Source: Mytilinidion resinicola (Eukaryota; Ascomycota; Dothideomycetes; Mytilinidiales; Mytilinidiaceae). Taken from it: DNA of 64,000 bases. This document shows positions 20,462 through 34,290 of the stretch, piece after piece. The notes below the pieces were generated by a model, which saw only the letters and a program-made list of their open reading frames with translations, was not told the origin of the DNA and did not search any database. Made by a program: the position numbers and the translations under genes. The stretch lies in contig NW_022985468.1 of the NCBI RefSeq assembly GCF_010093595.1, forward strand, positions 62,001 through 126,000. The letters run 5' to 3'. The stretch's first letter is position 1, and each line of letters starts with the position of its first letter.

Positions 20462-23136
20462 ATGGCAGAAGTTCGGCCGCAAGTGGTTTATAGCGATGTT
20501 GCCGAAGGAGCAGATCTCCAAGGGCAGCTGTTCGCTGGCAAGAAGTTCTTTATAGCTCAGCGCTGTCCTATGCGCTCGTCATTCGTCGAACAAGTCAAAA
20601 GCAACGGCGGCAAGGTCGTGCCACTCGAGAAGCTGGCGGACTATATCATTGTGGATCACATGCGCAAAGACATTCCAGCAGGCAGCATCTCATACACGTT
20701 TATTGAGCAATCCATCCGGAAAGGCGAGCTGCAAGACCCAGACGACCACGTCGCAGGCGAACCAGCGGGTACGGTGCGAGAAATTGGTTCATTCAGACCG
20801 ACGAAGAGTGGCCGCATTCCATTCACCGCTGAAGACGATAGACAGCTGTACAACTGGATCAAGTCGTATGAACGCGACGGGAGCGCAATCATGGGCAACG
20901 TGATTTACAAGCAGTTGGAGGAAAAGGTATGGTCTTCCAGATTTTCCTAACTTCATTGATTGACAAGTGCAGAATCCACGCCACCCATGGCAATCATGGC
21001 GAGATCGCTACGTCAAACATTTGCAATACAAACCGCCTCCTGGTTGCGCGCCTACTAATGGCCCACTCTCACCTCCTTCCGATGTACCTCCGTCCGATGT
21101 TGACTCAGCCGCTCGCCAGCCCGTTTCCGAACGACGGAAGGACAGCACAGTTTCGAGAAACGCGGATAGAATAAAACAAGTTCGGAGTGAAGTTGAGGAA
21201 CCGGAAGAAGCAGAACAGCCCCGAGAAGCCGGCTCCCCAGTTTGGAACTCGGAAGACTGGGACGAATTATACAACAATGTTCCCATTATCCAAAACGCTC
21301 CGGCTAGAGATTATATAGCGGGCTGGGAGCCATGGGCCCAAGGTACCGACCACACTGCTCAACAATGGCGAGACTTCTACGAGAAAACGGTGCTCCCGCG
21401 TTGGGAGAAGGACCAAGACGTAAAGGACACAATTGAGGTGAAGCCAGCTAAGGAGCAACGTCAAAGACCACCATCTCCGAGCGTGATTATCTACACACCA
21501 AAGAAAAACACCAAGAATCGGAACTCATCGTCTGCACAGAAACCAAGAAAGTCACCTGTGCAAGCTTCCACTGCGACGATGCAGTCTCTAGCTGTAGGGG
21601 ACTCTGTAAAATCACGCGACGATCTGATATACGAGCTGATGGGGCATCGAAAAGGCCGGCAACAAATGGTTGCTTACCGATTTTATTTCGAAGCTCATCG
21701 ACACGAACTCGAGGACTGCGATCCTACTGACTATTGTAAGTAGATTTATGCTGAGCTACTTGCCATGCGCTAAAACTTTGTGAACAGCAGCTCCTCATCG
21801 AAAACTTAACCCACGTTGGAAAGCTTTATCAGGAAAGGAGCAAGCCCCTTACTACCAACTAGAAGCTGCCGACAGGGAACGCCATCGCCTAGAAAGTAAT
21901 CCAACTGAGTACCGGGAATGGCGCCTCCAATATATAAACTCTAGCAAAGGCAATTCTAGCAAACGAGGCCGTGAAGAGGACGACGAAAGTGAGGAAACAC
22001 AGAAGGAGTTCTCAGACTCACGGAGAAGTAAGAAGCAACGCCAGCAGGAAAGCGTAGCTAATCAGGGCGATGTCCAGAACGAGATGGAGGGCCAAGATCA
22101 AGACGTAGTGGATCAAAGCCAAGACGCAATGGAGGACGACCAGGCGGCGGAAAGCAGTCATGAGGACCCGTCCATGGAGCAAAACGCCCAGAGGATATAT
22201 GTTGATGTTTCGGACGATTCTGAACCCGAGGAGGAAGATGAAGCCCCAGAAGAAGCACAAGAGGCCAGAACTCCGAAGCATCGAGTAATCGACCTGAGCG
22301 ACGATGAAGATGAAAGTGAGGAGGAGCAGGAAGACGAGGGGCAAGACGAAGTGGAGGAAGTTGATCACAAGGAGCAGACCGTATTTGACGATGCTTCTGC
22401 GTCTCCATCTCCTCACCAAAGCCGCTATAAACCCCCCACAGCGCTTGACACGCAGGCAATTCTCGCGGACCCAACACAGGTGCTTGATGTAGGCCTAGCC
22501 GACCTCCCCAACTCGCAGGAACATATTCCTAATGTTGATGTCCCCGATCTTTCTTATACGCAGGGAGAGAACCCTGATACCGGCCCAGTCGAACTCCCCG
22601 ACACGCACTTGGACCATTCGAGCGACCGGTCATCCTCTCCGCTTCCGGACCATGCTGCTTCCGATGGAACATCGCACTCGATCCAGGAATTTCGCAGCTT
22701 AGAGCATCTTGAACGCCAGCGCCAGTCTACTCCACCGCTGGACCTGAACATGCCCGAACCTGACATGGACTCAGACGTCGAATGGGACAGCCAAGAGGAC
22801 CCGGACCCACCTCTCGACGGCGAGGCTACTATGGAGTTCTACCATGAGATGCTAGACCGCGGCTACGACGATGAGCTCATCAGAGACGTCATGCGTGCTT
22901 GCATGACTAGAGCCAAGCTGTCGGAAGAGGTATTGGCTAAGGTAGCCCATGGGGAGCCGTGGCCTGAGAGGAGGGGCGTATGGACTGCCGAGGATGATGA
23001 AGATCTGGAGTCAACCGATGCGAGACGAGTCCGGAGAGTCATAAAGAAGCATACGGATGACGAGTGGGGAGGGTGTATGGAGCGGCGGACCGTGCTGGAA
23101 TATATCCGCCAGGTGTCCGAACAACGGCAGGGTTGA
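20462..23136 (+). CDS. RAP1: RAP1, telomere-associated protein
   Basis: Exons 20462-20926, 20973-21735 and 21788-23136 give 858 residues. RAP1 proteins bind telomeric chromatin directly or through a TRF-type partner. An N-terminal BRCT domain (about 24-105, GKKFFIAQRCPMRSSFVEQV onward) precedes a Myb domain (about 118-175, IPFTAEDDRQLYNWI). It is followed by a second helical block at about 380-460 with a conserved W and LNPRWKALSGKEQAPYY, like an HMG or Myb fold. Residues about 500-600 are strongly acidic (SDDEDESEEEQEDEG). Residues about 640-700 hold loose repeats of a D-x-P-D-L/V-x-x-S/T-Q type. The last 110 residues resemble the RAP1 C-terminal protein-interaction domain (TMEFYHEMLDRGYDDELIRD). 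Confidence 0.9.
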
Positions 23137-24751: not shown

Positions 24752-26066
24752 TCACTCGTCAGTATCGTCAATATTAGGCATGTACTCCCAGTCAGCCCTC
24801 CACAGCCATTCCAAGTTCTCGTCAGTGATGTTGGCTATATGGAGGGATCTCGCATCGTCGTATAGGCCGAGTGCTTGATCTATTTCCATATTGACTCGAA
24901 TTCCATAGGCCGCGTTCATCAGTAACGTGTCGAACGTGGGCTGCGGGAAGCGGTCGATGTTCTGGGAAGACGGCGGGTCGAACTGCTCCGGACTTGCTTG
25001 AATTGCCATTTCAGTAAAAGCCATGGTAAATGCAACCCAGTGTTTTGTTTGCCAAGTAGTTGTAACGCCTGGAGGTCTTCGGAACTCGATGCTACCAAAA
25101 CCAGTTGTCTTCGCCGAGCGAAAGTTCCACGAGACGTATTTGTCGGGAGACACAAAATCGACAATTTGATCTCTCTCCGACGTTTCTATGACTTCAAAGG
25201 CATCTTTAATGCCACGCAAGAAGCCACGCTGCTTGATAAGCCTGGCGATAGGTGTGCATCCCTTGATGTTGCTCTTGCAAAACGCGGAGATACGATCTTG
25301 TCTTGACATGGGACCCCATCGTGCGGTTTCTGGCTCATAAAAGGCGACGGCCTTTGCCACTTGACGAAGTTGGACGAGACTATATGACCCGGAGGCTGGC
25401 GAAATATGGACATGGGTACCACAGGAGATGTCCCGACGATAGAGGAATGCATCGTCCATAACCGACCAGAACTTGTCGATGGTGTAGACCCAATCAGCGT
25501 CTGCCTTGATGATCGGAGTGACGATTTCTACAGGATCTATGCAGCAAAGCGTGTCAGCATTCTTGAGAAAACTTATTCATGTGAATAGGTTCTAAGAATG
25601 GAGACAGTTTTGTGCCTTGCTTCAAAGCAGGCTTACAGAAACCGTTGGCAATATGGGCCTTGGAAATGGAGGCATCAAGCGTGGCGTTCCATTTGGTGTA
25701 ATCGGGTTCTTCATCGCAGTTGTGATCGAACACGTTGCAAGGCATTTCGGACGCCGATAGCAGCTGGGCAATCATTTTCAACAGAGTGAAGTTGAAGTCG
25801 CGCGTCTGTCGTGGAGTTGCATCGGAGTCTGGAAGACGGAGATCGAAAGGAAGCGAGTCGATGTGCTTCGGTCGGATGATGAGTTCGAGTTCCACACCGA
25901 AGTTGAAAGGTAAATGGGCACGGGCATGTGGCGTGCTTGTCGAAGGACGAGGGGTTGCGTTTGCGGGGGACGCGATTGACCAAGAGAGTATACCTGCAGA
26001 AGTATGACGGACGGGCGGGCTCCGTGTGAGGGAGAAGAAGTTTTCTGCACAAAAAAGGGAAGACAT
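24752..26066 (-). CDS. Putative amidoligase
   Basis: Exons 26066-25637 and 25536-24752, joined by a 100-nt GT-AG intron with correct phase, give 404 residues. The start is uncertain, and upstream sequence includes other splice-like sites. The Amidoligase_2 family (PF12224) belongs to the glutamine-synthetase-like COOH-NH2 ligases, which join carboxylates to amines using ATP. The N-terminal strand FGVELELII at about 54-62, the central CGTHVHIS at about 182-189 and the late IEFRRPPG at about 292-299 are the metal, nucleotide and substrate motifs expected. No signal peptide is seen. The next gene upstream, on the same strand, encodes a gamma-glutamylcyclotransferase-like protein, a combination reported in bacterial amidoligase operons. 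The substrate is unknown. Confidence 0.82.
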
Positions 26067-26362
26067 TGTGTCGGATGTCGTGTGAGCTGCGAAGCTTGAG
26101 AGTTGTGGGCTGAAAGTGGTGCTGCGAGTATGGAGAGTGAGGAGAGTGAGAGCATTGGGGAAGAACAAATACCTCGCATTTGTTTACAATTTACATACGT
26201 AAGTCGAGAAGGTGATAACGACGCCGGGTGAGCTCATAGAGCTTTCCAAATATAACCTTTAACAAAGTGGACTACCGGCTGATAGCTCGATTCAACCTGC
26301 CTGAAAAGGACATCATACAACAACAAGGATATCCGTAAATTCTCTTGCACCGCCTACCCGCA

Positions 26363-27313
26363 TCAAGCCAAGTCTTCCTCAGATCCAGCATACCTGAATG
26401 TGCAGCCCTTTACCAGTTGCTTCAGACCCACGGAGGCAATAACTTCCAGCACTATATTGCACCGCACGACCTCGTACTTCTCCGTCTCATATACCAGTAA
26501 AGCGTCTTCTTCGTCCCTGGATTGGACTTGGTATGCAAAACCCTCCACGAGGTTTCCAGGTGAGTCAATCATCGCCCTATATCGGCCACCCCACGTCTTC
26601 AAGATGCCACCTTTGAGAGAAGCGCGGTATAAGATAGGCAACTTATGAGCGACGTCACTCCACCCGAACAGATTGGCCAAGAGGTCTTGGTCTGCAAGGG
26701 TGCCGTAGAAAAAGTACCAGACGGGGTACTCGTCCTGCAGAGGATATGGACGCGAGGCGTCCCAGGCATTGGGTCGATGTTGGGGAAGTGTAGTATCGAC
26801 ACCTAGACTGGGGTAGGTAGACGTGCTTGACAGCTCCTTGGATGCCTTCCCGATTCTGATGAAAGTTGGCCGGTATGAGGGGTGCTTTAGATTCAACCAG
26901 TCGACTAGAACGTCCTTTGAATGGGGGCTCAGACGACAGAAACGAGCTGTGCCTTCGTCTCCAGTTGCTTTTTCCACGCTGGGTGTATTGTTCGGGCCAA
27001 GGTTTGCGGCTACGGCGAGCTCTTCTGGGGTGCTGAATGGAGGCTCCAACTTGACCAAGTAGAAGACATTTCCGCCCGTGGTCTCTCGCTTCCGGCACTG
27101 TGAGGCGCCAATTTGGGAACGCTTCTGGCGCGAGTTGACTCCATTTTGGATGTCGTGGATGTGCTGGAGAGTATCATCGCGTAGAAGTTGAGGATCTTTG
27201 AGCTTTGCCGGGGTGTAAAAGGCCTCCTCGTGAGCTTGGGTACCTGCCTCGAGGGCCATATCTTCCAGTTCTGCCTCGAGGGCCACGTCTTCCAGCACAC
27301 TGAGCCAGTCCAT
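26363..27313 (-). CDS. Gamma-glutamylcyclotransferase-like (AIG2) protein
   Basis: Intronless, 316 residues from the ATG at 27313. The same frame is open further upstream, but only the part after this ATG is convincing. The N-terminal 80 residues are charged and helical and recall no family. The C-terminal third has the GGCT/AIG2 fold: the nucleotide-like loop WYFFYGTLADQDLL at about 205-218, GGRYRAMIDSPGNLVEGFAY and the YETEKYEVVRC strand that closes the family domain. Enzymes of this fold cyclise gamma-glutamyl amines to 5-oxoproline or remove gamma-glutamyl groups from amines. The amidoligase starts about 300 bp downstream on the same strand, so the two may make and remove the same kind of amide bond. 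Confidence 0.78.
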   Translation of the reverse strand: MDWLSVLEDVALEAELEDMALEAGTQAHEEAFYTPAKLKDPQLLRDDTLQHIHDIQNGVNSRQKRSQIGASQCRKRETTGGNVFYLVKLEPPFSTPEELAVAANLGPNNTPSVEKATGDEGTARFCRLSPHSKDVLVDWLNLKHPSYRPTFIRIGKASKELSSTSTYPSLGVDTTLPQHRPNAWDASRPYPLQDEYPVWYFFYGTLADQDLLANLFGWSDVAHKLPILYRASLKGGILKTWGGRYRAMIDSPGNLVEGFAYQVQSRDEEDALLVYETEKYEVVRCNIVLEVIASVGLKQLVKGCTFRYAGSEEDLA

Positions 27314-28349: not shown

Positions 28350-31032
28350 CTAATCCCTAGGCTTCCAACTCGCCAACCTGTTCCCCACTGACGCCTGAAC
28401 CTCTTCTACTCAAAGTTAGCCTTTACTCCCACAATTCAGTGTCAAACTCAGTAAACTTACCAGCATCCATCTTATGCAACGTCTTCATATACTCCGCAAA
28501 CTCCTCACCCATCTTCACCACATCGTCAAGATGCCTCGCACTAATTGGTACGTGCGCCTGATCCGCCAGCGCAATAGCCGTCCTCACACAGTTCCGAATC
28601 TGCCTCCCATTCAAGTTACACTTTCCCAACTTCGCATTCACATGTTTCAGCAAGTCTTTCCTTGAATCTTTATGTATGCCATTCAAATCCTTGATAAAGA
28701 TTTTCCAAATATCCCTCCTCGAGTCCTCGTCTAGCAGCGGCAGACCCAGCGTCACATGGATTCGGGATTGGAACGCTTCGTCGATCGCTCCAACGCGGTT
28801 CGTTGTGAGAAACAGGATTCCGTCAAAGTACTCGAGCTCTCGCAGGAAGACGGAGACGAGGGCGTTGCGGTTGACATCTTTGTAGTCGCGCATTTGGAGG
28901 AAAATATCGGCTTCGTCAAGGAGGAGGACGGCGTTCCATGTTGTGGCGTCTTTGAAGATGCGTCGCAAGTTCATTTCGAGCTCCCAGGGCTCGGTACCCA
29001 GGTCGCCACAGGTGACCATGTAGAGGGGGCGTTGGTATTCGTCAGCAACGCATTCTGTTCGTGGTAAGTAAAGTAACCCTACTAGTCTGCCAAGGGAGTA
29101 TAGCATGCTTACCCGCTGTCAACGTTTTACCGGTACCAGGTGGGCCATGGAGAAGTAGCACGAGACCGCGTCCCTTGCCTTCTACGATGTCGCGGAATTT
29201 ACGATCATCAGATGTGTATGTGGAGACGAGGGCTTGAACAGTCCGCTTGTAATCAGCCTTCATGACCAATTTGTCGAACGCCTTCTTCCTGAACTCCACA
29301 GTTTTCAGATCACGAAGTTTGACCGGCATCCAGGATTTATCGCGGAGAGAAAATGCGTACGCGCGATCTGGACAGAGTAGTAGCGTCAGGTCGTCCGGCT
29401 CAGAATCGGGCTCGACCGAGTTGTACTTTGCGTATGGCGACACTCTATCCAAACGCTCAAAGTTTTGTCGAGCCGTCTCGCGTTTCTCTTTGCAATCGCT
29501 GCATGGACAGTGCATTTCTTGCGATTGGTTACTGACCCCCTCGATTTTGATACCTTCGCTACCGGTCTTGGAGTACGCTGCGTGGTCTACTACCACTCGG
29601 AGGGTGTCCTAAAGCATGGTTCAGTATTGCAAAAAGCGCCCGGATAGAGGATGTGTAGCAATCTCACCGCTAAAGAAGTCTTAGACCAAGCCTTTCCAGT
29701 GTACAACCGGAATATTTTATCCTTCTCTTTCAAATTCCAGAACGAACGGCCTCTCTCAATCAATTTGTCCCTGATTTCTGGATCACTGTACTTCTCCGGC
29801 ACAACCTCCAGCTGCTCGATCTCCCGGGAACCATTGAAAGGTCGAACATAAAGCTCTGTGTATGTCCGGCCAAACCGATATCCATCGAAATCAATGGACC
29901 AGCATCGGAGCTTCAGAGAGGTTCGGATTTCCCGACCACTTGGCAATTTTTCGATTTCACAGCCAGCCAACTCTTCGACCATGTATGCACGCTTTTCGCC
30001 TTCAGGTGATGAAACAACCACCTTTGCCTTCTCGCCCTCGTCTTTATCTTCAGATTCTTGTGTCGAGTACACGATCGTTCCAGGACGGAAGATAAGCCAA
30101 GAGTTGGCGAAGGAGATGACCTTCCGATCTTCATCTTCCTCCAAGGCGTCTAGCTCCTGCGAAACTTCCGGACACTCCGTCTTCATAAATTCCAGAACAT
30201 GCTCGAGATGCGTCCTCGTCTCTACATCCAGCTCAGGATTGGCTAGCTCCTCAGAAATGCTTTTTCTGTAATGGAAAAGCAGCATGAATGGATCCATGAA
30301 AGCAACCATACTCCCTCCTAGGGCCTGCCCGGGGTAATATTTGACAGCCCTGCGAAGGAACTGGATGACCAGTCTGGATCTAATCTCAAGGGTCTTCTGG
30401 TTGTTTTTCTCGATGTTACGAGTCACGGTCAAGATATGCTTCTGATCAGCCCCATTCTTCCCTTTTGCATTCTCGTCTTCGTCGGCGACCGCTGCGGCAG
30501 CTGTGGTCTCCTTGCGAAGCCTTTTGACTACAAGCTTAGGTCGTCCATTCTCGTCCTTGTTCTCTTCCTCTTCTTTCTTCTCGGATTTGGTTTCGTCTTT
30601 CTTGCTCTCGTCCTTTGGTTCTTCTTTCTTATCCTTCTCGAGTGCGGCAACTTTCTTTTCTAGCTCTGTAATGTACGACGCCAGGAACCGCGACGTGAGG
30701 CCATCAAGTCCTTCAGGTCGTCCAGAATTGCGGTCCTGGGTCTGGATCTCAAGTCGTTCCTGCTTCAGAATCTCTCTCACAAGCTCCTTGAGAGCCGTCG
30801 GATCGTTGCCATTGACGGCTGGCTTCTCCGTTGACTCCATGGCGGTAGGGCTTAGGGCAGTTACTTCACTTCCAGTCAACTCGCCACAACTCTCATTTTC
30901 CGTCTCGAGGGTTGCGGTAGTTGCAGTTGAAGCGAACGTATCGTACCGCGCAATCGAAGGCTTCTTCGAGTCCTGCAAGAGTCCAGGTTGAGGGAGAGGT
31001 TGAGGCTGAACAGGTGGGGCTGTCGCAGCCAT
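28350..31032 (-). CDS. AAA+ ATPase with fungal N-terminal domain
   Basis: Exons 31032-29668, 29608-29113, 29054-28461 and 28405-28350 give 836 residues. All joins keep phase. The last intron has branch GCTAAC, and the final exon encodes only EEVQASVGNRLASWKPRD. Residues 1-130 are disordered. A Lys/Glu-rich coil lies at about 140-200. A beta-rich domain of the fungal DUF7025 type spans about 230-450. The AAA core has Walker A GPPGTGKT at about 608-615, Walker B LLLDEADIF at about 665 and sensor LFLTTNRV. It is complete and probably active. Proteins of this layout are abundant in filamentous fungi and their client is unknown. No membrane segment is seen. Confidence 0.88.
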
Positions 31033-31656: not shown

Positions 31657-34290
31657 ATGGAGCTCTCTGAAGGCATAAGCTTCATCAAGCCCCCCAAACG
31701 GGCGTCCACTATAGGCGCAAAACCCACTCTAGATCAGCTACAAAGACGACTCCCACTCGCAGAGGGAGATGGAGCATTGATCCCGAGTCCAGCTCCTAGT
31801 CAAGGGAAGCAGTGGGCTTTAGAGATCTGGAAAAGGTTTGTAGATTTCCTTCATATCACGCTTCATATCTTTGCTAGAGCATTCTAACCAGGCAATAGCC
31901 ATGGAACCCAGCAATCATACCAAGCACTCAAATCAGCCGTCCATACATACAACAGCTTGGCCAACACAGAAAAGCTCGCCCAAATCCAAGAGCGCTCAGC
32001 GTGCTTCGTTGACGTCCGGAACGCCGCCTTCGCCGCGCGGGACAGACGAGCAAAAGAGGCCGCGAGTTCGAACAAGATCGTGCGGAAAATAAAGTCCGGC
32101 CTCGACAAATTTTGCTCTACAATCTACTTTTACGCCCCGATCGTAGACGTCGTGTCCCAGGCAGCGCCCGAGTATGCAACCCTAGCGTGGGGATGCATCC
32201 GCTTCCTACTGATCATGAACATCAACTCCGTAGAGCTGAAAGAGACGGTGCTGCAAAAGTTGGCGGATATCGGCGATCAGTTCGAAGTCGTCAGATGCTT
32301 TCTAGGATTGTACCCGTCGGAAGCCATGGCGAAGCACGTGTGTGGAGCGTACGAGGCTTTCACGAATTTTCTCGCGGAAGCAGTCAAGTATTACCAGGAG
32401 AACTCAATAAGTTAGACCCACAGCGGTCATATTGGTTTGAACGACGCTAATAATATATACAGAGAACTTCTTCAAAAATATAGCCCTGCCGTACAAAATC
32501 CGCTTCGAGCCACTCTGTCAAGCCATCAACGGCCACGTCATTAAAGTGAAGGAAGTGGCATCATTGGGCCAAGGCATCGCCATCGCCGAAAACACGACCA
32601 TCACCAAGCAAACCCACGCCCTGATGACCATGGGCAACTGGAAAATCGACGAAACGAACCAAACCGTGAAAGGCCTCAGCCAGGGTCTGACCGCCATGAT
32701 GGAAGAGGCCCAAAAACAGTTCGACTGGCAGCGCCAACAAGCAGAAGAAGCACGCAAACGCGAAGAGATCGACCCCTTTGAAGCATCTAAGACTCTCCTC
32801 AGCACCCGCGCCCTCCCTGTAGTCCTCCTCCTCATCCGTCCCCCGACCCTCGCCCCCGCTTTGTTAGATTCATCGCCTCACGCCGAACTCGCCCGCCTCT
32901 CCCTCGCCGCCGAGACAAAAGGCAGCACAAGCCGCACCTACGAACGTCTCGGCCTCCTCGAGAACCCGCAAATAAACACGTGGGTCGAGTCGCGCGCCTC
33001 CTCCTTCCTTTACATCGACGGCTTCCTCTCCCGCCCGGACTGGACAACACAGCTATCCCTCGACGTCGCCAAAGCCGCGCGCGAAGCTGGGAACGTCGTC
33101 CTGAGCCTCATGACTGGCGAGCAAGCCACAGCCCCCAACTCTGACGGCAGCGCCGGGAGTGGGAGTGGGAGCGGACCCAGCCGCCCAGTCGCCTGGACCT
33201 GGCGCTTCATCGAGCAGCTCGCGCACCAGCGGCCCGACTACTTCACCTTCGAAGCGCAGTGCGCGCTCGTGACGGGCCTGTTAACCGCGCAGGCGGATTT
33301 CAAGGGCGCATGGCAGGTCCTGCTCAGCAGCATCCGCGCGACGAACTTCGGCTTCGTGTATATAGTCATCGACAACATGGACGCCGCGTTCGACGAGTCC
33401 GCGAGCGCGGACGAGCTGGACGAGCTGTTGCAGGGGCTGCACGCCCTCACGCAGATCGAGAACCGAGTCGGTGCGTGACGCTCTAATCTGTCCCTTCGTG
33501 GGAGGCTGCTGACGGTGGTTTAGTCAAGATATTGATCACGGCTCGGCGCACCCGCTTCTACGAGCTCAACGTCACGCCGCCGGGAAGCATGACCATCGTC
33601 CGCGTCTCCCCCTTCACGGATCTCGGGCAGAAAGGGAGACCGAGCGGCCGCAAAGGCGTGCTCGCGGCTATGCGAAAACCTAGAATGGGGCGGCCAACCC
33701 GCCTGCCCGATCGTGACACAAGTGCTGATGTTACGTTGAGCGATAGCAGCGAGTGGGATGACGAGAAGCTGGAGGAGATGCTGGAGAGCAGTGACGAGGA
33801 AGGGCGGAAAAAGAAGGCGGCGAGGCGGCGGGAGAGGGGAAGGAAGGTGAGTGTGGTTAAGGCTTTGGGTAGTGTCGATTCGTTAGACTCGTTAGATTCG
33901 GATTCTTCGAGCGATGGTGGGGGAGGGAATGGGCTGAAGGAGCTGGGGAAAGCCAAGGCGAGTGGTGGAGTGAAGAAGAGGGTGGCCGGGACGGAGAGCG
34001 AAGATTCGCTAGACTCGTTGGACTCGCTGGATTCGCTGGATTCGCTGAAGTCGCTAGATTCGCTAGACGAGGCGCTGAAAACGTCGAGTGATGAGGAGGT
34101 CTCGCCGAAAGAGGATCGGAAGAAAACCAGAGCGTCGACTCAGCCGAAGAGCGGGGGGAAGACGGGTGAGGAATCTAAGAATGTAGCTACAGGATCTGGA
34201 GCATCAACCCACTTGCATGCTCCTCAGCCTGTAGCTCCTACTTGGACACACTCTCCTGAAGGGTCCGACTCGGACTTAGACTCTCTATAG
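31657..34290 (+). CDS. DUF7708 STAND-like protein with DSL repeat tail
   Basis: Exons 31657-31835, 31899-32410, 32463-33470 and 33524-34290 give 821 residues with consistent phase. Residues about 80-230 match the DUF7708 helical domain found at the N-terminus of fungal NACHT/STAND proteins (ACFVDVRNAAFAARDRRAKE through EAFTNFLAEAVKYY). An NTPase-like region follows: SFLYIDGFLSRPDWTTQLS sits where Walker A should be but lacks the GxxGxGK[ST] core. Walker B is recognisable (VYIVIDNMDA, about 528) and the next strand is VKILITARR. No ankyrin, WD40 or TPR repeats follow. Instead there is an acidic/basic tail with runs of Asp-Ser-Leu. It is probably a non-hydrolysing relative of fungal NLR-like receptors. 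Confidence 0.8.
34003..34065 (+). repeat. 9-bp coding repeat (Asp-Ser-Leu) x7
   Basis: Seven consecutive 9-bp units of the form GAYTCGYTR encode DSL DSL DSL DSL DSL KSL DSL within the STAND-like gene. A shorter DSL run occurs at about 33880-33900. One unit has AAG in place of GAY. Copy number is likely to vary. Confidence 0.85.

What the first reader, a model, noticed from the sequence alone, without database searches (positions are those of the whole stretch)
24752..27313. Amidoligase next to a gamma-glutamylcyclotransferase-like gene in a fungus
Two same-strand neighbours appear to have opposite chemistry: one a GS-like COOH-NH2 ligase (FGVELELI, CGTHVHIS, IEFRR motifs seen), the other a GGCT/AIG2-fold enzyme (FYGTL loop seen). 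This pairing has been described in bacterial operons that make and trim gamma-glutamyl-type amides. In a fungus a persistent pair would suggest an undescribed peptide or amine modification pathway, or horizontal gain.
Basis: partly seen in the sequence, partly recalled or inferred. Interest (0 to 1): 0.8.

Follow-up and report, generated by a model that had tools for sequence, protein, structure and literature searches.

The report
Fungal ligase and cyclotransferase gene pair
Two neighbouring genes in a fungus look like one enzyme that builds an amide bond and one that removes it, and the same two genes sit side by side in three other fungi, one of them distantly related, which hints at an undescribed make-and-remove chemistry.

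Summary
On the minus strand, 26363-27313 encodes a 316-aa protein with a GGACT/AIG2 domain, and 24752-26066 a two-exon, 404-aa Amidoligase_2 (PF12224) protein, 296 bp downstream. Motifs are intact; the catalytic-type glutamate E276 is kept in 61 of 61 aligned relatives. AlphaFold models (window GGACT; a relative's amidoligase) match the GGCT and glutamine-synthetase folds.

The pair persists. In the three species whose two proteins both stood in my lists they are neighbours: the window, Plenodomus lindquistii (tags 005891/005892) and Trapelia coarctata (005468/005469). Massarina eburnea carries both in one gene model. That spans two classes. For the other 10 of 14 named species with this amidoligase no partner was visible. 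Gene trees roughly follow taxonomy, with exceptions, so recent horizontal gain is not supported.

Amidoligase-GGCT pairs are already annotated in phages and a Clostridium element. A fungal pair turned up in no paper I saw in eight searches; the key 2009 review was not held. Function is inferred: the ligase makes a gamma-glutamyl-type amide, the cyclotransferase releases it as 5-oxoproline.

The parts
24752..25536 (-). Amidoligase gene, exon 2 with stop codon (residues 144-404); PVEIVTP at 25514-25534, CGTHVHIS at 25400-25423, IEFRRPPG at 25067-25090
   Evidence: PF12224 E 7.9e-9 on 24755-25459; splice model and residue numbers; motif coordinates worked out by hand from these
25537..25636 (-). 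Intron of the amidoligase gene, 100 nt, GT...AG, phase 1
   Evidence: Joining gives the NGFYPVEIVTP reading seen in relatives and in the public protein P0001
25637..26066 (-). Amidoligase gene, exon 1 (residues 1-143 and first base of 144); FGVELEL at 25881-25901
   Evidence: In-frame ATG with an upstream in-frame stop at 26186; relatives align from about residue 40 on. The start codon is a prediction
26067..26362 (-). Intergenic stretch of 296 bp between the GGACT stop and the amidoligase start
26363..27313 (-). GGACT/AIG2-like gene, 316 aa, no intron
   Evidence: PF06094 E 4.4e-7; 100% identical to P0028
26390..26728 (-). GGACT (GGCT-fold) domain, residues about 196-308; FYGTL at 26696-26710; YETEKYE with Glu276 at 26471-26491
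   Evidence: Foldseek and VIA-align to Arabidopsis AIG2-like and human GGACT/GGCT structures; E276 in 61 of 61
26846..27070 (-). N-terminal beta-alpha-beta-beta-alpha-beta domain, residues about 82-156, of unknown role

Best explanation
A conserved two-gene module of leotiomyceta (filamentous ascomycetes). The downstream gene encodes a glutamine-synthetase-fold carboxylate-amine ligase that, with ATP, joins a carboxylate (most likely the gamma-carboxylate of glutamate) to an amine. The upstream gene encodes a two-domain GGACT-type cyclotransferase that takes such a gamma-glutamyl amide apart, releasing 5-oxoproline and the free amine. Together they would put on and take off a gamma-glutamyl mask or tag. 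Shown: both genes, profile and fold matches, intact active-site-type residues, neighbouring genes in four species of two classes, trees that fit mainly vertical descent. Inferred: catalytic activity, glutamate as the acyl part, and a shared substrate, which may be a small amine or a peptide or protein lysine.
Against: I saw no report of activity for any close relative. The cyclotransferase family is far wider (649 hits at E<=0.001) than this amidoligase clade (26 rows in the tree), so it must also work without it. Lophium mytilinum has an 80%-identical cyclotransferase, yet no Lophium amidoligase was listed. General gene-order conservation was not measured as a control. Pairing was visible for only 4 of 14 named species of the clade. 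The first His of CGTHVHIS is Tyr in 2 of 22 non-gap rows. 7 of 10 phage loci opened had no GGCT gene annotated near.
Confidence: 0.55

Rival explanations
1. Two unrelated enzymes that merely stay neighbours because gene order was kept by descent; the cyclotransferase does ordinary gamma-glutamyl turnover and the amidoligase something else.
For: The cyclotransferase family is much wider than the amidoligase clade. Among the flanking proteins scanned no other gene of such a pathway showed; they are RAP1, PAN2, DHHC, AAA ATPase and others.
Against: The genes are neighbours in both Dothideomycetes and Lecanoromycetes, between which gene order is generally scrambled (recalled, not tested). The same two families pair up in some phages and a Clostridium element.
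Confidence: 0.27
2. A protein-tagging or isopeptide cycle: the ligase attaches glutamate or a peptide to protein lysines, in the manner of the Pup ligase family, and the cyclotransferase clears gamma-glutamyl-lysine, the substrate type of animal GGACT (recalled).
For: Dop depupylase structures are among the Foldseek matches of the ligase model; human GGACT is among the best matches of the partner.
Against: YbdK, GMAS and GS rank above Dop and Dop is not among the 50 rows; no tag or target was found, nor was one looked for.
Confidence: 0.1
3. Recent horizontal gain of a ready-made bacterial or phage pair.
For: Such pairs exist in some phages and a Clostridium element; phage amidoligases match weakly (6 records, 23-25% identity, E 1e-4 to 4e-3).
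Against: Trees roughly follow fungal taxonomy; the fungal cyclotransferase has an added N-terminal domain; the first named bacterial match to the ligase profile is only E 2.8e-8, though unnamed rows above it may be bacterial too; scans of viral and GTDB contigs found no relative, but they use a few exact peptide patterns; the gene has an intron.
Confidence: 0.04

Closest known systems
Amidoligase_2 (PF12224) plus GGCT/AIG2 (PF06094) pairs of phages and mobile elements: Arthrobacter phage Laroye gp97/gp98, Blautia phage NatCom_24097, C. difficile Tn6164 Orf22/Orf23
   Same: The same two families side by side; same strand in the two phages, strand not seen for Tn6164
   Different: The fungal cyclotransferase has an extra N-terminal domain; no glutamine amidotransferase or ATP-grasp gene was seen beside it, unlike Laroye gp99 or UFV-P2; the ligase gene has an intron
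GS-fold gamma-glutamyl-amine ligases (gamma-glutamyl-methylamide synthetase, 1-naphthylamine GS, YbdK, plant glutamate-cysteine ligase)
   Same: Fold and a similar pattern of acidic, His and Arg residues (residues; the comparison is recalled)
   Different: Identity only about 9-14% in the structural alignments; no sequence hit in the PDB; substrate unknown
GGACT/AIG2-like proteins (human GGACT 3juc, Arabidopsis At5g39720 and At3g28950)
   Same: Fold, and a Glu at the same aligned place in At5g39720
   Different: Two-domain architecture; 120 of 649 hits seen, named ones fungal

Membership tests
Amidoligase_2 (PF12224) | Profile match over the curated cut-off | tested here: met
   36.2 bits vs 22; 58.5 bits in the genome scan
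Amidoligase_2 (PF12224) | GS-fold core with acidic, His and Arg motifs | tested here: met
   Fold on the model of relative P0004, not of the window protein itself; residues present in the window protein. That they bind metal and ATP is recalled
Amidoligase_2 (PF12224) | ATP-dependent carboxylate-amine ligation | not testable with these tools
   Needs purified protein
GGACT/AIG2-like (PF06094) | Profile match over the curated cut-off and GGCT fold | tested here: met
   30.9 bits vs 22.8
GGACT/AIG2-like (PF06094) | Catalytic glutamate and YGTL loop | tested here: met
   E276 61 of 61; Y203 61, G204 60, T205 59, L206 60 of 61; E276 aligns with a Glu of 2g0q in a weak match, E 0.1. That it is the catalytic Glu is recalled
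GGACT/AIG2-like (PF06094) | Cyclotransferase activity releasing 5-oxoproline | not testable with these tools
   Needs an assay
Amidoligase-GGCT gene module | The two genes are neighbours in divergent genomes | tested here: met
   Window plus Plenodomus, Trapelia, Massarina; for 10 of 14 named species nothing could be seen
Amidoligase-GGCT gene module | Further partners such as a class II glutamine amidotransferase or ATP-grasp ligase next to the pair | tested here: not met
   None among the 16 open frames scanned, which are part of the window's genes; none annotated beside the Blautia phage pair either
Amidoligase-GGCT gene module | Adjacency above the general level of gene-order conservation | not tested
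   No fungal genome collection on hand

The most novel reading that the evidence does not exclude
An ancestral, vertically kept module of leotiomyceta that reversibly caps an endogenous amine or lysine with a gamma-glutamyl group, lost repeatedly with the cyclotransferase surviving alone, and with the extra N-terminal domain recognising the capped substrate: a eukaryotic write-and-erase gamma-glutamyl modification not yet described.
Probability: 0.25. Interest if true: 0.8.

Novelty: new variant of a known kind. Interest (0 to 1): 0.5.

Why it matters
If the two enzymes share a substrate, filamentous and lichen-forming fungi have a make-and-remove gamma-glutamyl pathway that I found described nowhere. 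In the passages I saw, the phage and Clostridium pairs are annotations without a tested function. A fungus in which only one copy of each gene kind was found could give a clean genetic system in which to learn what such pairs do.

Tried and rejected
Recent horizontal gain was considered and set aside. Scans of viral contigs with A1 and A3 and of GTDB contigs with P0171 and A1 found no relative; they use a few exact peptide patterns, so distant kin would be missed. A tblastn of P0004 against phages gave 6 weak records and PHROGs gave a phage amidoligase family at E 2.2e-6. A sequence search of the PDB with A1 found nothing up to E 1; NCBIfam found nothing for P0004 and P0028.

A true gene fusion in Massarina was rejected: the joint 616-aa model lacks the cyclotransferase's YETxKYEVVRC end, so it reads as two neighbours merged by gene prediction; it still shows neighbourhood and order.

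Duplication of the genome's other GGACT gene was rejected: the open frame there (C37) is 260 aa, with a differing DIFEGHEY motif and, by eye, no such N-terminal domain.

The unannotated protein just upstream of the amidoligase in seven of the ten phage loci was tested as a hidden cyclotransferase in all seven: none matched PF06094.

Rows dropped: P0026 and the 135-aa fragment P0149 were left out of the amidoligase tree, as were most rows beyond P0148; the GGACT tree used 65 of 120 rows plus the Massarina part, alignment A3 61 of 120.

Iyer et al. 2009, which classified these ligases, is not held; I know it from citations and reference lists and recall, so whether it mentions a fungal pair is open.

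Full report
What is there. The stretch 24752-27313 holds two minus-strand genes. The upstream one (27313-26363) is a single open frame of 316 aa with a GGACT/AIG2 domain at its C-terminal end (PF06094, 30.9 bits, cut-off 22.8). The downstream one has two exons, 26066-25637 and 25536-24752, around a 100-nt GT-AG intron, and gives a 404-aa Amidoligase_2 protein (PF12224). Stop and start are 296 bp apart. Of the six frames of each coding sequence, no other is open for as long.

Which organism. The window is part of contig C32 of its genome, 446,750 bases long. A public protein named BDZ99DRAFT_370568 of Mytilinidion resinicola, on a contig of the same length, matches the amidoligase apart from one missing internal stretch and its ends. 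The window's own GGACT protein is listed for a contig of that length too. M. resinicola belongs to Dothideomycetes, Mytilinidiales. The genome scans, which read exon by exon, found one PF12224 place and two PF06094 places; the second GGACT gene is a different protein.

Are the enzymes intact? In the alignment of 24 amidoligases, gaps left out, E59 and E61 are kept in 13 of 13 rows, E147 in 22 of 23, H185 in 20 of 22, H187 in 20 of 20, N281, E294, R296 and R297 in 23 of 24 each. In 61 GGACT relatives E276 and Y203 are kept in 61 of 61. E276 aligns with a Glu of the Arabidopsis AIG2-like protein 2g0q, although that sequence match is weak (E 0.1). That this Glu is the catalytic one rests on recall; a human GGACT E82Q mutant entry stands among the structural matches.

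Does the pair persist? Three protein searches gave 81 amidoligase rows and 120 GGACT rows; for GGACT that is 120 of 649 hits. Comparing contig lengths, three pairs agree exactly and none is off by 1-5 bases: the window itself, Plenodomus lindquistii (NX059_005891 and NX059_005892) and Trapelia coarctata (MMC30_005468 and MMC30_005469). I take consecutive tags to mean neighbouring genes; their strands could not be seen. In Massarina eburnea one 616-aa gene model carries the GGACT part within residues 1-215 (E 8e-49) followed by the amidoligase. Trapelia is a lecanoromycete, the other three are Dothideomycetes. By my reading of the listed names, no named species stood in both lists without being such a pair. 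For the other 10 of 14 named species of this amidoligase clade (Letrouitia, Dirinaria, Wetmoreana, Loekoesia, Hypoxylon, Xylaria, Naviculisporaceae, Pleomassaria, Stylonectria, Trichoderma) no partner was listed, which says nothing either way.

Descent. Apart from the four species looked up, class names here are recalled. In the amidoligase tree (31 rows, 5 as outgroup) the Sordariomycetes form a group (99/94), most lichen fungi another (93/87), and Pleosporales a weak one (85/43); Wetmoreana, also a lichen fungus, falls outside, the window's own place is open, and only 9 of 28 inner branches are well supported. In the GGACT tree (66 rows, SH-aLRT only) the linked proteins do not form a clade of their own: Trapelia sits among lichen fungi, and the window, Massarina (a long branch) and Plenodomus in one 12-row set (96). 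There are exceptions: Macrophomina, Diplodia, Lasiodiplodia and Trypethelium stand apart from the other Dothideomycetes, and Xylographa apart from other lichen fungi. This fits an old pair inherited mainly by descent, with the amidoligase lost or unseen in many lineages, but does not prove it. Against a strict partnership, the GGACT family is far wider than the amidoligase clade, and Lophium, whose GGACT is 80% identical, had no amidoligase listed.

Precedent. I opened ten phage loci with an amidoligase, taken from hits. In 2 of 10 a GGCT gene is the immediate neighbour (Laroye, Blautia phage; PF06094 E 2.1e-18 and 2.6e-16), in 1 of 10 it lies four genes away (Bacillus phage 031MP003, by its annotation), and in 7 of 10 none is annotated within the 2.5-4 kb shown. 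In print, passages seen: Arthrobacter phages, genes 97 and 98 (PMC5513430); Phage-ZRK32, both genes in one genome (PMC10945688); phage UFV-P2, ORF23 and ORF29 (PMC3890496); C. difficile Tn6164, Orf22 and Orf23 (PMC3485107). For fungi, searches for amidoligase with fungi (15 papers), with fungal (16), with AIG2 (3), with gamma-glutamylcyclotransferase (2), amidoligase alone (81, of which 40 listed), and three further searches on AIG2 or cyclotransferase in fungi (0, 0 and 4 papers) listed no paper whose title or abstract start tells of a fungal amidoligase-GGCT pair. I saw passages of only a few: of the 15 papers, three. PMC3158057 notes the amidoligase domain as enriched in Sclerotinia and Botrytis.

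How it most likely works. The ligase would activate a carboxylate with ATP and join it to an amine, as GS-fold ligases do; the partner would cyclise the glutamyl part and free the amine. Close structural matches on both sides handle gamma-glutamyl amides, which is why I name glutamate as the likeliest acyl part; that step is inference. What the amine is I cannot say. Among the flanking open frames scanned no biosynthetic cluster shows: RAP1, a DHHC transferase and PAN2 on one side, an AAA ATPase and a DUF7708 protein on the other.

Verdict. It is a new variant of a known kind: a fungal version with a two-domain cyclotransferase. What would raise its interest is a gene-order control and an assay.

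Noticed in passing
window 26774-26845 (GGACT residues 157-180): The linker AxKxLS..S.YPTLG.D.TLPQHRP has six residues invariant in 61 sequences (A157, K159, P168, L170, P177, R180), yet the model is unsure over most of it (block pLDDT 46-68 for residues 161-190); it may be a lid or a substrate-like segment.
   Followed up: no
[not shown]
   Followed up: partly
window 25204-25380 (worked out by hand): The public gene model P0001 skips this stretch, which is open here and present in 17 of 23 relatives of A1; models of Hypoxylon, Naviculisporaceae and Xylaria relatives skip an overlapping part, so this gene may often be annotated wrongly.
   Followed up: partly
window 20462-23136: RAP1-like telomere protein gene (BRCT, Myb, Rap1 C-terminal domain) beside the amidoligase gene.
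   Followed up: no
window 28423-31032: AAA ATPase gene with DUF7025 and a fungal AAA lid domain, same strand, upstream of the GGACT gene.
   Followed up: no
window 31957-34290: DUF7708 protein followed by a frame with a weak NPHP3_N match below its cut-off, and Ser-Leu-Asp repeats in the frame at 33532-34290.
   Followed up: no
L008, L009, L010, L011, L013: In five phage loci the gene just upstream of the amidoligase is a protein of phrog_4877 or phrog_11055, of unknown function and without a Pfam match over a cut-off.
   Followed up: partly
L012:1642-2406: The gene just upstream of the Blautia phage amidoligase, annotated hypothetical, itself matches the phage amidoligase family phrog_2443 (E 1.8e-49).
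   Followed up: no
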